Below are positions 39,492 to 47,566 of a stretch of DNA of 64,000 nucleotides, piece after piece. Below the pieces are notes generated by a model. That model was not told where the DNA came from. It saw nothing but the letters and a program-made list of their open reading frames with translations, and ran no database searches. Each line of letters begins with the position of its first letter. The first letter of the stretch is position 1. The translations under genes and the position numbers were made by a program. Source of the DNA: an uncultured Prevotella sp. (GTDB taxonomy: Bacteria; Bacteroidota; Bacteroidia; Bacteroidales; Bacteroidaceae); contig OMXK01000020.1 in the NCBI GenBank assembly GCA_900314995.1, positions 1 through 64,000 of the forward strand. The letters run 5' to 3'.

Positions 39492-41252
39492 TCAAGCCTC
39501 GTTTCGACAGAAATTCATATAGATGCAGTTGATGCCATTCATGTACTTGTGGTTGATATTCTTGCACAAGCGCGACAGGATGGCTCGTCGTAGGTTGTTC
39601 TCATCCATATCCATTATTTCCTCATCCGAATATTTGTAAAGCGGATTTCGCAGGGGACCCTTGCTTTTCACCACTACCGTCAATTCCTTTTCCTTGTCGA
39701 TGATACGCACATCGAAGGTTTCATTCTCGTCAGAGGTTTCATGCGTCTCCATAATTTCATAGAGCAGCTCCTCCAACGCAACATCCACGGCAAAACCGTC
39801 TGGCAGTTCGCATGCCTCAATAAAGGGGTGCACCTGGGCCAGGAATTCCTCTATGCCCTCAGGGGTATAAGGCACGGAGAACGTGACGGCCGGGTTTGAT
39901 GGCACCGTATTCTCAAGTGTAGGCCATGCATAAAGCTGATTCTTGCGATGCACCACATACGCCATAGCCACCATCACCAACAGCAGGAGCCAGGCGGTGA
40001 CGGGCAGGATATACCAGATGAGTTCGGGGGTGTAGAGAGCCATGACGACAATAATGCCGATGCTTCCCACGTTGGACACGATCTCTATCCATCGGCAGAG
40101 CTTCTGATGCCCCTGCACGAAGTAAAGCACGCTCAGTGTCTCAGATATGGCATTGGGCAGGAAGGCGAGGCTCATCAGACGGAAGGGGATGTAGCACTGT
40201 TCTATCAGATGGTCGTCGGCACCAAAGACTCTTGCCAGCATATCGGGGAAGAGGAATATCAGCAGGCTCACCGTCACCATCACCAGTATCAACATGCGGA
40301 AGATGCGTTTTGTGAGCATGCGAAAGCTGTCGTAGTCTTCTTCACCCAACAGAATGCCGCCGATATTGCTGATAGCCGTGTTCGAGCCTGATAATGCCAA
40401 CATACAAATACCGTTGACTTGGAAATAGACGGTAAATAAATACATACCGTCGGCACCGAGTTTATCGACAACCAGCGAGTTCATGGTGAAGACCAAAGCC
40501 GGCGCTAACAAGGCTGATATCAGCATGGGGAGTCCGATGGAGAAACACTCGCGATACTGCTTGATGCTGCATATCTTCTCTGGGCGCCTGAGACGGAATA
40601 TCTTACTGTTCTTGCGCAGATAGCCTGTCAGCGAGGTGAAAGCAAGCAGATTGCTGAGTCCTGAAGCATACGAGGCACCGGCCAAACCCATATCCAGCAC
40701 GCCGCAGAGCAGCAGGTCGAAAATGACATTGAGTATCTGAGAGATGATGATACGTCGGGTGATGAGGCGCGGACTGCCGTTGGTGATGATATAGGAGACG
40801 GGTACGCCACAAACGGCTGCTATGAAGATGGCGAACATGTCGGCATGAATATAGGGCTTCAGCATGGGCAGCAACCGCTCGTCGGTTGTTAACATGCCAG
40901 CCACCTCGTCGAGGAAAGGCAATACAAGACCTATGACCAACAGCGTGGAGAAGATGACATAGTACAGGTGATTATTGAACACGCGGTTCACCTTGTCGTA
41001 GTTTTGGGCACCAATGCCTCGTGCGCTCAGGAAACTGGCGCCGGCACTCATTATGCCGATGATGATAAACATGCTGCTCGAAACGGGTAGCCAGATACGG
41101 ACTACTGACAGTGCATCGGGCGACACCAGATGAGACACTACGATGGAGTCGGTGAAACCACCCAACTGTCTCATCAGAGCCGACATGACGGTCGCCAGAA
41201 AGAACGACCCGAACATGTTCTTCAAGACATATTCATTTTGCTGTATCATCAT
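39492..41252 (-). CDS. MATE-family transporter fused to an RsbW-like ATPase domain (copy 1)
   Basis: A 586-residue protein. Residues about 10-450 form the twelve-helix MATE/MVF exporter fold (MFGSFFLATVMSALMRQLGG, GAQNYDKVNRVF, SGSNTAISNIGGILLGEED). Residues about 460-586 resemble the HATPase_c_2 fold of RsbW/SpoIIAB (AVDVALEELLYEIMETH, then RAILSRLCKNINHKYMNG). The N-box Asn and the DxGxG motif are not conserved, so ATP binding is doubtful. It is the last gene of the peptide operon and overlaps the upstream fusion gene by ATGA. It is very similar to the copy at 45174. An export role for the modified peptides is inferred. Confidence 0.85.
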   Translation of the reverse strand: MMIQQNEYVLKNMFGSFFLATVMSALMRQLGGFTDSIVVSHLVSPDALSVVRIWLPVSSSMFIIIGIMSAGASFLSARGIGAQNYDKVNRVFNNHLYYVIFSTLLVIGLVLPFLDEVAGMLTTDERLLPMLKPYIHADMFAIFIAAVCGVPVSYIITNGSPRLITRRIIISQILNVIFDLLLCGVLDMGLAGASYASGLSNLLAFTSLTGYLRKNSKIFRLRRPEKICSIKQYRECFSIGLPMLISALLAPALVFTMNSLVVDKLGADGMYLFTVYFQVNGICMLALSGSNTAISNIGGILLGEEDYDSFRMLTKRIFRMLILVMVTVSLLIFLFPDMLARVFGADDHLIEQCYIPFRLMSLAFLPNAISETLSVLYFVQGHQKLCRWIEIVSNVGSIGIIVVMALYTPELIWYILPVTAWLLLLVMVAMAYVVHRKNQLYAWPTLENTVPSNPAVTFSVPYTPEGIEEFLAQVHPFIEACELPDGFAVDVALEELLYEIMETHETSDENETFDVRIIDKEKELTVVVKSKGPLRNPLYKYSDEEIMDMDENNLRRAILSRLCKNINHKYMNGINCIYMNFCRNEA

Positions 41253-42610
41253 ATTTTTAATCTATAAACCGCCACGCCTATCATCGTGAACTTATCCTTC
41301 ATGTATGTGTAAGCATCCATACTCTCAAGTCCTAATCCATCTTCGCTGGCATGATAGAAGTGAAGCCTGCCGTCGATCCACTTGGCTATCAGCAGGTGCT
41401 TGACCTCCACGCCTCTTGCCCAGGTATGCTGACCACACACCGCCGCCATGATGTCGCCATCGCGAATCACGCTCAGCTCTGAATCCTGAGGCATGTTCAG
41501 CAGTTCACGGGGGATATAGGTAAAGCGCACACCCTGCTGCTGGCGAAGGGCGATGGCCTCGTAGTTCTTTTCGTCATCCATCTGGGGGGAGAATAGATAT
41601 TTGTTTCTGGTCATATAACTCGGCTGCATATCCTGCACCCCCGTAAAGGGAAAGACAGGCTCGTCGGGACTGATGCGCTCCACAAACCCCTCTTTGATGG
41701 CCGACTGCATGATCCAGGTGAAGTAATGGTTGCGGGTGGCAAACGAGATCACACCGTCCTGATAGTGCATGCGCCGGTAGTAGTCCTTCAGGTCATCCAG
41801 CGTGGCGCGCCCGTCTCTGTAACATAGTGCCAATGCCAACACATCCTCCATCACGGTGGTACAGTCCACATGACTGAGGCTCACCATCAGGCGTTCTTCC
41901 TCCATCGGCTGCGTGAATTCTGTAGAACTGCCGCCCTCCATCAGTTGGCAGAAGAAGTATTCTGTCAGCGGCATTGACTTATCGACGTTTTTCATCGCAC
42001 GCTGCAGTATCTGCTCGTTTTGCGCGTCAAACTGCTGCTCGTTGCGTCGCAGGCGGCGGATTAGAATTTTCCAATAGATCCAACTCTCGATATCACAGAT
42101 AGGTGTCCTCACGCAGAATACGAGCCACAGCGAGCGCAGCGCTGCCAACTGTTCGCGCCAGAAGTAGGGGTTGGTCTTCACCTTCTCATAGTCGCTGATG
42201 TCAATGCCCCAGGCATCATAACCCAGCCATCGGGCAATGCGCAGCGAACGGGCGATGTGGAAACTGCTGGTCAGGATGTAGTATCGGGTTTGCCCGAAAT
42301 GCATCTCCATGTTCCATACCGAGCGGAAGGTGTTATAGCCACAGGAGTCGAGCACGAAGCGCTCTTCAGGAATATGGTATTCCTCTACCAGCGTGCGGTA
42401 GATGACGGTCGTGTCGGAACGGCAACCTGAGATGTAGAACGTCCAGTCAGGATAGGCGTTGGCAAGGATGCTCACCAGCCTCACCCGCAGCTGCAGGATA
42501 GGTGAAAGCGAGTTGTCGGGACGCAGTTTGGCACCTAACACCAGACAAACCTTCAAGTCCTCGATCAGAGGTGCCTGCAACCTGTCATTATGTAACTTAA
42601 CATACCGCAT
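41249..42610 (-). CDS. Fusion of SanA/YdcF-like (DUF218) and DUF1460 (NlpC/P60-type amidase-like) domains
   Basis: A 453-residue protein without a signal peptide. Residues about 20-170 match the DUF218 fold: VCLVLGAKLRPDNSLSPILQ, YISGCRSD, HIPEERFVLDSCGYNTFRS, SSFHIARSLRIARWLGYDAW. Residues about 200-453 look like DUF1460: HVDCTTVMEDVLALAL with candidate catalytic Cys250, GDIMAAVCG, and VKHLLIAKWIDGRLHFYHAS with candidate catalytic His. DUF1460 proteins act on cell-wall peptides (family knowledge) and are normally exported. It starts inside the end of the upstream gene (14-base overlap). A peptidase for the precursor peptide is one possible role. Confidence 0.75.
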   Translation of the reverse strand: MRYVKLHNDRLQAPLIEDLKVCLVLGAKLRPDNSLSPILQLRVRLVSILANAYPDWTFYISGCRSDTTVIYRTLVEEYHIPEERFVLDSCGYNTFRSVWNMEMHFGQTRYYILTSSFHIARSLRIARWLGYDAWGIDISDYEKVKTNPYFWREQLAALRSLWLVFCVRTPICDIESWIYWKILIRRLRRNEQQFDAQNEQILQRAMKNVDKSMPLTEYFFCQLMEGGSSTEFTQPMEEERLMVSLSHVDCTTVMEDVLALALCYRDGRATLDDLKDYYRRMHYQDGVISFATRNHYFTWIMQSAIKEGFVERISPDEPVFPFTGVQDMQPSYMTRNKYLFSPQMDDEKNYEAIALRQQQGVRFTYIPRELLNMPQDSELSVIRDGDIMAAVCGQHTWARGVEVKHLLIAKWIDGRLHFYHASEDGLGLESMDAYTYMKDKFTMIGVAVYRLKI

Positions 42611-43178
42611 CGTCGGATTCGTGCATTTTTTCTTCTATAGTATGAAGAAGAATGATCTGCTCTCTGACACTGGCGGCAAACGCATCGCCGTTTTCCAAAA
42701 TGTAGGCCTTCAGTTCGGCGATGTCCTTACACCCCAGATGGTGGATCACCGTAAAATGCAGGCCCCATCCTTCGGCATTATGCCCGGCACCGTCGAAGGA
42801 AGTCACCCTGCCGTCAATAACATCTTTATTGGTGCGCGCCCACAGGTGGAATATCCTGTCAATGGCATAATTCTGATCGCCGTCGGCATGGCAGTAGCAA
42901 ACCAGTTCGTCAGGATGTTCCTCAAGGTATTGGGTAATCACCGCCACAATCATCCGCCCCACTTCCTTGTCAGGCGCACCGCCACGCTTCCCGTCGGCAA
43001 GCCTGAGCAAAAAGTAGAGTACCCGATGACCGCCCATCTCTGCCACCTCAATGAAGTGAAGCACATAAAGGCGATTCGCGGCATTGTAAAACTCCACCGC
43101 CGAATCGCCTCTTTTCCTTAACACCAGTTTGGATATGGTATTGATCTTCGCTATTCCTTCTTCAGAAACTGTATTCAA
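42597..43178 (-). CDS. Hypothetical protein of the peptide cluster (possibly DUF6169-like)
   Basis: A 193-residue cytoplasmic protein starting with TTG at 43178, two bases after the stop of peptide gene 1, so translation is likely coupled. No ATG lies within the first 45 codons. A central part (VAVITQYLEEHPDELVCYCH..IDRIFHLWAR) recalls short Bacteroidetes proteins of unknown function such as DUF6169, which is only a tentative match. The N-terminal 37 codons recur as a broken copy at 46983-47098. It overlaps the next gene by 14 bases. Function unknown; the context points to peptide handling. Confidence 0.6.
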   Translation of the reverse strand: MNTVSEEGIAKINTISKLVLRKRGDSAVEFYNAANRLYVLHFIEVAEMGGHRVLYFLLRLADGKRGGAPDKEVGRMIVAVITQYLEEHPDELVCYCHADGDQNYAIDRIFHLWARTNKDVIDGRVTSFDGAGHNAEGWGLHFTVIHHLGCKDIAELKAYILENGDAFAASVREQIILLHTIEEKMHESDDAVC

Positions 43179-47319: not shown

Positions 47320-47389
47320 CGTATAATTCCCTTATTCTTATCTTTTTTGCAAGATAATTAACGTTAATTAACCATTGTCGGGCTGCACT

Positions 47390-47566
47390 ACTGTCGATAT
47401 TCATTAACTTGTCATCTGAATATTTGTAAATAGGATTACGCAAGGGACCCTTGCTCTTGACCACCACTGTGAATTCCTTTTCCTTGTCGATGATATGTAC
47501 ATCGAAAGTTTGATTCACATTACGGCCTGTATTGCTTTCGACAATCTCGTAGAGCAGTTCCTTCAC
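47390..47566 (-). pseudogene. Remnant of a third MATE/RsbW-like C-terminal domain
   Basis: The frame from a GTG at 47566 reads KELLYEIVES, TFDVHIIDKEKEFTVVVKSK and GPLRNPIYKYSDDKLMNID, matching the C-terminal domain of both MATE proteins, then loses homology. The GTG overlaps the trmD stop (GTGA). It is 5' and 3' truncated, so it is a relic of an earlier gene copy at the island edge. It could still be translated as a short coupled ORF to 47282. Confidence 0.65.

What the first reader, a model, noticed from the sequence alone, without database searches (positions are those of the whole stretch)
39492..47566. Candidate undescribed radical SAM RiPP system in a duplicated island
Seen: three short peptides share the leader NDNPFxIRKSPVxIISAQAL..LDDYVxR but have unrelated cores. 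Beside them, mostly with overlapping or near-contiguous genes, lie a PqqD-like/radical SAM/SPASM protein, two MATE-type transporters with an added C-terminal domain, a DUF218-DUF1460 fusion and a hypothetical protein. Known: constant leaders, variable cores and SPASM enzymes mark RiPP pathways. Inferred: the SPASM enzyme modifies the Cys-containing cores, the DUF1460 fusion may cleave, and the MATE proteins export. I do not recognise this combination as a named class.
Basis: partly seen in the sequence, partly recalled or inferred. Interest (0 to 1): 0.95.

Follow-up and report, generated by a model that had tools for sequence, protein, structure and literature searches.

The report
New radical-SAM peptide pathway in Prevotella
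This stretch of a genome from the bacterial genus Prevotella (judged from its relatives) holds three small genes for cysteine-containing peptides that share one leader sequence, beside a radical enzyme, two transporters and two other proteins, and together they are predicted to make and export a chemically modified peptide of a type not named in the databases or papers we searched.

Summary
Three 48-51 aa peptides share the leader MAKNDNPFxIRKSPVxIISAQALxLDDYVxR and have different cores. They sit in a rearranged tandem duplication between trmD and trpS, with one radical SAM/SPASM enzyme, two MATE proteins with a degenerate GHKL-like tail, a DUF218-AmiA-like (DUF1460) fusion and a protein of predicted GNAT-like fold. 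The leader tracks the enzyme: of 398 same-genus genomes, 12 have the leader, 12 have this enzyme (a 13th has a remnant) and 11 have both; the leader-only genome breaks off inside the cassette. The 120 best-scoring of 471 peptide relatives all keep a core Cys. The enzyme model resembles the RiPP maturases SuiB, SkfB and ChlB and has a PqqD-like N-terminal arrangement. No NCBIfam model shown reached its cutoff for it. A sister branch (about 31% identity) across Bacteroidales has a different two-Cys mini-peptide just behind the enzyme in 16 of 20 loci, which supports a peptide-maturase role. I read this as a RiPP pathway, probably forming thioethers at the Cys. The chemistry, leader cleavage, export and product activity are inferred. 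New variant of a known kind, not a categorically new system.

The parts
47282..47566 (-). Remnant of a third MATE copy (C-terminal GHKL-like tail only), directly behind trmD
   Evidence: tblastn 58.8-60% identity to MATE residues 492-561 over 47363-47566; repeat family D1
47355..47371 (-). Repeat TTAATTAACGTTAATTA upstream of pep3 (possible operator)
   Evidence: read from the sequence; a like element upstream of pep1 and in some relatives; function inferred
47312..47319 (-). TAnnTTTG Bacteroidota-type -7 box upstream of pep3 (TATCTTTG)
   Evidence: sequence; consensus recalled, function inferred
47100..47252 (-). pep3, 50 aa precursor; core GSWESGCVKSGVCPSSAKK
46941..47099 (-). Truncated copy of the 193-aa gene (first 42 residues homologous)
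   Evidence: 81% identity to residues 1-42 over 46974-47099
45174..46937 (-). MATE transporter B with C-terminal degenerate GHKL/HATPase_c_2-like tail, 587 aa
   Evidence: PF01554 1.1e-25, PF13581 0.051, below cutoff
43672..45177 (-). RRE-like/radical SAM/SPASM maturase, 501 aa: CX3CX2C at 135-142, seven SPASM-region Cys 362-455
43601..43617 (-). Repeat TTAATTAATGTTAATTA upstream of pep1 (possible operator)
   Evidence: sequence; function inferred
43557..43564 (-). TAnnTTTG -7 box upstream of pep1 (TATATTTG)
   Evidence: sequence; consensus recalled, function inferred
43350..43496 (-). pep1, 48 aa precursor; core TLDDGDRVSFCATTNKK (the core type of the listed relatives)
43181..43336 (-). pep2, 51 aa precursor; core GEFGTDFHCRSGVLDGTSKK
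42597..43178 (-). 193-aa protein (TTG start), predicted GNAT-like fold, weak DUF6169 similarity; role unknown
41249..42610 (-). DUF218-AmiA-like (DUF1460) fusion, 453 aa, possible leader peptidase
   Evidence: PF02698 1.6e-09, PF07313 4.4e-20; DCTT, KHLL and FYH conserved in 13 of 13 aligned
39492..41252 (-). MATE transporter A with the same tail, 586 aa
   Evidence: PF01554 9.4e-26, PF13581 0.0019, below cutoff; 84% identical to copy B

Best explanation
This is a cassette of three short peptide genes with one shared leader and different Cys-containing cores beside a radical SAM/SPASM enzyme, and it likely works as a RiPP pathway in which that enzyme is predicted to bind the shared leader and to crosslink the core cysteine. 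Proposed order of events. (1) The PqqD-like N-terminal domain of the enzyme binds the NPFxIRKSPxxIIxAQA part of the leader (inferred). (2) The radical SAM core and the SPASM clusters form a thioether from the core Cys to a nearby residue (inferred; acceptor unknown). (3) The AmiA-like half of the DUF218 fusion cuts after the ...LDDYVxR leader (weakly supported). (4) A MATE protein exports the product (inferred by analogy with the MATE of tryglysin operons). (5) The GNAT-fold protein may acylate or bind the peptide (speculative). The window carries two rearranged copies of one unit that share a single maturase, so one enzyme would serve three precursors.
Confidence: 0.7

Rival explanations
1. 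The peptides are RiPP precursors but the enzyme makes another change (epimerisation, C-C or ether crosslink, Asp or Arg modification), and the conserved Cys serves to hold the substrate on an auxiliary cluster.
For: The structural neighbours include SuiB and the peptide epimerase EpeE. In the CteB structure a substrate Cys binds Aux I (PMC6231123, passages read). The listed pep1-type cores also conserve two Asp (114 and 106 of 120) and a Thr (118 of 120).
Against: Cys is the only core residue kept in all 120 listed proteins; by eye the other core types seen also have Cys, and the sister branch keeps two Cys.
Confidence: 0.25
2. The product is a peptide-derived redox cofactor in the manner of mycofactocin or PQQ.
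For: The enzyme scores against mycofactocin maturase (1.5e-22) and PqqE (3.9e-19), both far below cutoff. The pep1 core is conserved rather than diversified.
Against: Several different cores share one leader in one genome; a transporter is part of the unit; by eye no dehydrogenase or glycosyltransferase is in the unit.
Confidence: 0.08
3. The short peptides are unmodified signals or regulators, and the enzyme acts on something else.
For: No mass data exist; Prevotella sp. ne3005 has the enzyme with no precursor found within 10 kb (L009).
Against: The same ne3005 genome holds two precursors on other contigs. Leader and enzyme occur together in 11 of 398 genomes and apart in 2 (3 with the remnant). 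The sister family repeats the enzyme/Cys-peptide pairing with different sequences.
Confidence: 0.05

Closest known systems
Sactipeptide/ranthipeptide maturases with RRE and SPASM/Twitch domains (CteB, AlbA, PapB, SkfB)
   Same: Likely RRE-like N-terminus, radical SAM core and auxiliary-cluster domain; Cys-bearing precursor with a conserved leader
   Different: No NCBIfam model reached its cutoff among the 25 shown of 51; SPASM spacing CX5CX2CX3C; usually one Cys per core; MATE gene in the unit and no ABC transporter
Streptide/SuiB and tryglysin/WgkB RaS-RiPPs of streptococci
   Same: SuiB is the top VIA-align row; tryglysin operons have a transporter WgkD, called MATE by NCBIfam and 'predicted transporter' in PMC8092268 (passages read)
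   Different: The tryglysin operon sits behind an SHP/Rgg regulator and has a separate RRE protein, WgkC (PMC8092268, passages); no such regulator was noticed here; leader and cores are unlike
Bacteroidales RiPP clusters of PMC10352776 (BAGEL4 survey)
   Same: Same order; radical SAM areas are the commonest there (174 areas in 195 Prevotellaceae genomes), so this system may be counted among them unnamed
   Different: In the passages read the 9 clusters studied mostly have GG-motif precursors and peptidase-ABC exporters (all but two); this system has neither
Mycofactocin and PQQ pathways
   Same: SPASM maturase and small precursor
   Different: No cofactor-using or glycosylating genes noticed in the unit; multiple cores; transporter present

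Membership tests
RiPP pathway (general) | Short precursor genes with constant leader and variable core next to a maturase | tested here: met
   leader shared, several core types
RiPP pathway (general) | Precursor occurs with its maturase across genomes | tested here: met
   11 genomes with both, 1 leader-only (contig ends in cassette), 1 enzyme-only fragment, 1 enzyme remnant, of 398
RiPP pathway (general) | Post-translational modification of the core | not testable with these tools
   Needs mass spectrometry
RRE-dependent RiPP | PqqD-like RRE domain | tested here: inconclusive
   Predicted strands 9-14, 19-24, 29-34 and helices 35-46, 55-62, 66-77; PF05402 not matched in 19 members nor in 14 N-terminal pieces; the RRE-Finder paper says PF05402 misses most RREs outside PQQ (passages)
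SPASM radical SAM enzymes | CX3CX2C cluster motif | tested here: met
   CSERCLHC; the three Cys are invariant in 19 of 19
SPASM radical SAM enzymes | Seven-Cys motif CX9-15GX4C...CX2CX5CX3C...C (PMC6231123, passages) | tested here: inconclusive
   Seven Cys invariant in 19 of 19 and the first part fits; the second part is CX5CX2CX3C in 8 of 8 tight members checked; Pfam SPASM 24.9 bits, above its cutoff of 21.5
Sactipeptide/ranthipeptide | Cys thioether to alpha, beta or gamma carbon | not testable with these tools
   Core Cys in 120 of 120 listed is consistent but not proof
Sactipeptide/ranthipeptide | Match to a named maturase model (AlbA, SkfB, StsB, PapB) | tested here: not met
   AlbA 63.6 bits against cutoff 850; StsB 48.3 against 625; SkfB 43.5 against 300; PapB not among the 25 rows shown of 51
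GG-leader/PCAT Bacteroidales RiPP | GG-type leader and peptidase-ABC exporter | tested here: not met
   No GG in the leader; no ABC transporter domain in the unit's proteins
Mycofactocin | Match to MftC model TIGR03962 | tested here: not met
   80.2 bits against cutoff 265

The most novel reading that the evidence does not exclude
The window shows one branch of an undescribed Bacteroidales RiPP superfamily. A single lineage of RRE-like radical SAM/SPASM enzymes has two precursor systems: NPFxIRKSP-leader peptides with one or two Cys and MATE export in Prevotella, and LNVSxASKVVxM-leader mini-peptides with two Cys (C[PS]x6CG[IV]xYR or ACAYQSSCP types) elsewhere in the order. The first branch would use a new leader peptidase (DUF218-DUF1460 fusion) and a transporter with a built-in GHKL-like sensor or partner domain.
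Probability: 0.5. Interest if true: 0.78.

Novelty: new variant of a known kind. Interest (0 to 1): 0.66.

Why it matters
Prevotella was the commonest bacterial genus among the rumen genomes of one survey (398 of its assemblies; PMC8241843, passages), and the RiPP surveys whose passages I read count radical SAM areas in this group without describing this leader or gene set. A leader that tracks a maturase this tightly gives an immediate test set: 471 precursor relatives at E 0.01 or better and three named Prevotella strains, ne3005, tc2-28 and MA2016, taken to be cultured isolates. If the thioether reading is right it adds a maturase clade with unusual SPASM spacing, and possibly a new leader peptidase and a new export logic. 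The sister branch extends the same question across the order.

Tried and rejected
Viral or plasmid origin: the enzyme profile found no relative in viral contigs, and the enzyme none in the plasmid collection at E 1e-30. Phage-defence reading: only hits to prokaryotic viperin models, best 2.4e-15 over residues 127-286, which is the shared radical SAM core; not pursued. RRE by sequence: the N-terminal profile against PDB sequences gave a transcription regulator at E 0.012 as its best chain, not significant; Pfam gave only scattered weak winged-helix families in 1 or 2 of 14 pieces each. Chance matches: the loose leader pattern hit 41 of 398 genomes. I sorted the matches by reading the letters: 12 genomes have the NPFxIRKSP leader (11 translated, the window); I take the other 29 as chance, and the backward control pattern also matched in about 37 genomes (counted by eye). 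Those 29 were not translated further. Sister loci without a clear two-Cys peptide: L022, L026 and L113 have only doubtful candidates, and L118 is cut; an earlier, stricter pattern missed most of these peptides because it forbade an inner Met. Genome searches with the enzyme profile scored at most 3 to 5 candidates per genome. Paper searches showed nothing in the listed titles and abstract starts that names this system; some listings were cut, and the library holds only openly licensed PubMed Central papers.
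Full report
What is there. The window segment 39492-47566, minus strand, carries in transcription order: a MATE C-terminal remnant, pep3, a truncated copy of the 193-aa gene, MATE B, the radical SAM/SPASM enzyme, pep1, pep2, the full 193-aa gene, the DUF218-AmiA-like fusion and MATE A. trmD (47563-48252) and trpS (38362-39450) border it (both names are my reading of the sequence and not from a family search). The three peptides share 29 invariant columns of 51, 27 of them in the leader. 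The repeats show copied parts: 71-88% DNA identity in families D1-D5.

How the window arose (inferred). Related genomes show single units at the same site. G155 and G361 read trmD-peptide-193 aa-DUF218 fusion-MATE-enzyme-trpS. G114, over a contig break inside the enzyme gene, reads trmD-enzyme-pep1-pep2-193 aa-DUF218 fusion-MATE-trpS. The window is the G114 order with an extra partial unit (MATE remnant, pep3, cut 193-aa gene, MATE B) between trmD and the enzyme. G018 has trpS and trmD about 0.4 kb apart without the cassette and carries cassette genes on two other contigs. I read this as tandem duplication with loss of parts; the order of events is not shown.

Is it a system? Enzyme relatives: 92 proteins at E 1e-3 or better, 73 of them at least 40% identical. 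A scan of one genome per species gave 28 loci: 19 at 58-98% identity (L003-L021), 5 at 30-32% (L022-L026) and 4 distant ones at 21-28%. Among the 19, a leader peptide lies on the fetched stretch in 12. L006 and L010 start inside the cassette. In 398 same-genus genomes the leader occurs in 12 and the tight enzyme in 12, together in 11 (Fisher p 1.7e-19, no correction for relatedness). Leader without enzyme: G013, whose contig ends just after the 193-aa gene. Enzyme without leader: G272, a fragment at a contig edge. G400 holds only a remnant, the start of the 193-aa gene run into the enzyme's C-terminus, and is not in the Fisher counts. The enzyme is patchy: 2 of 60 relatives. In 399 genomes of the family the tight enzyme was found only in the window's genome and one other of the same genus, with sister-level matches in 7. 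In 295 of the order it was found only in the window's genome; 4 others have sister-level matches.

The precursors. A profile search found 471 proteins at E 0.01 or better, of which the best 120 are listed. All 120 have a Cys in the core, with 85 distinct cores as my script cut them. In the alignment the core Cys is 120 of 120, the Thr two residues on 118, and two Asp 114 and 106. The listed ones are pep1-type, as expected from the ranking; the other 351 were not seen. Other core types in loci include IPICA, GSWESGCVKSGVCPSSAKK, GEFGTDFHCRSGVLDGTSKK and, in ne3005, LELDGAGMASCMSSKSHGPFKEK. Pep2 differs only by silent codons among 4 genomes (1 to 4 per pair). Pep1 differs by more amino-acid-changing than silent codons in 25 of the 28 pairs of 8 genomes (raw counts, not scaled to the number of sites), which does not support simple purifying selection there. 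By eye, a TAnnTTTG box lies upstream of 20 of the 22 first peptides of units printed (not in L013 and L014; some rows come from near-identical genomes), and a TTAATTAAxGTTAATT-like repeat in a subset; the consensus is recalled.

The sister branch. Enzymes at about 31% identity in 20 fetched loci carry a mini-peptide with two Cys on the same strand, its open frame beginning 39 to 235 bases behind the end of the aligned enzyme stretch, in 16 of 20. Thirteen are of the C[PS]x6CG[IV]xYR type and three of the ACAYQSSCP type, one of these in three tandem copies (L116). L022, L026 and L113 are doubtful and L118 is cut. An alignment of 16 such peptides keeps L5, S11, C19 and C27 (11 of its rows were typed). 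Two of four further loci also have one (L150, L153). None of the 20 loci has the MATE, DUF218 fusion, 193-aa gene or NPF leader by tblastn or pattern. Of three sister enzymes scanned, all score AlbA at 1.4e-24 to 6.1e-26 and two show PapB at 1e-10 and 1.5e-12, all below cutoff. This independent pairing is the strongest support for a peptide-maturase role.

Judgement. RiPP pathway about 0.9; Cys thioether about 0.5; MATE export about 0.7; leader cleavage by the AmiA-like half about 0.4; acylation by the 193-aa protein about 0.25. These are my estimates. Product function is unknown; a secreted antimicrobial or signal would fit.

Literature. I saw passages only of PMC10352776, PMC13289728, PMC8241843, PMC8092268, PMC7470986 and PMC6231123. 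None of the passages describes this leader or gene set. Supplementary tables were not available, so unnamed detections in those surveys cannot be excluded; PMC10352776 counts 174 areas of interest in 195 Prevotellaceae genomes, and this system may be among them.

Noticed in passing
L023, L024, L025, L103-L112, L114-L116 (for example L104:5166-5270): Sister radical SAM enzymes with two-Cys mini-peptides just behind them; in several loci a protein of about 285 aa follows that matched no NCBIfam model in the two copies scanned.
   Followed up: partly
L117 (G400) 8824-9332: Deletion scar: the first 28 codons of the 193-aa gene run into the last third of the enzyme gene; a decayed cassette.
   Followed up: partly
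L009 and L148, L149 (Prevotella sp. ne3005): A maturase with no precursor found within 10 kb, directly behind a mutY-like gene (named by eye), while a precursor with a new core (LELDGAGMASCMSSKSHGPFKEK) with no cassette gene on the 3-kb stretch fetched and a second unit lie on other contigs: an in-trans arrangement.
   Followed up: partly
37438-38301 and 48249-49130: Two patatin-like genes (by eye) lie outside trpS and trmD on the two sides of the island; possible paralogues.
   Followed up: no
L102 3961-5364 (G018): Second MATE copy broken into pieces behind the enzyme, again suggesting repeated duplication and decay of the transporter gene.
   Followed up: no
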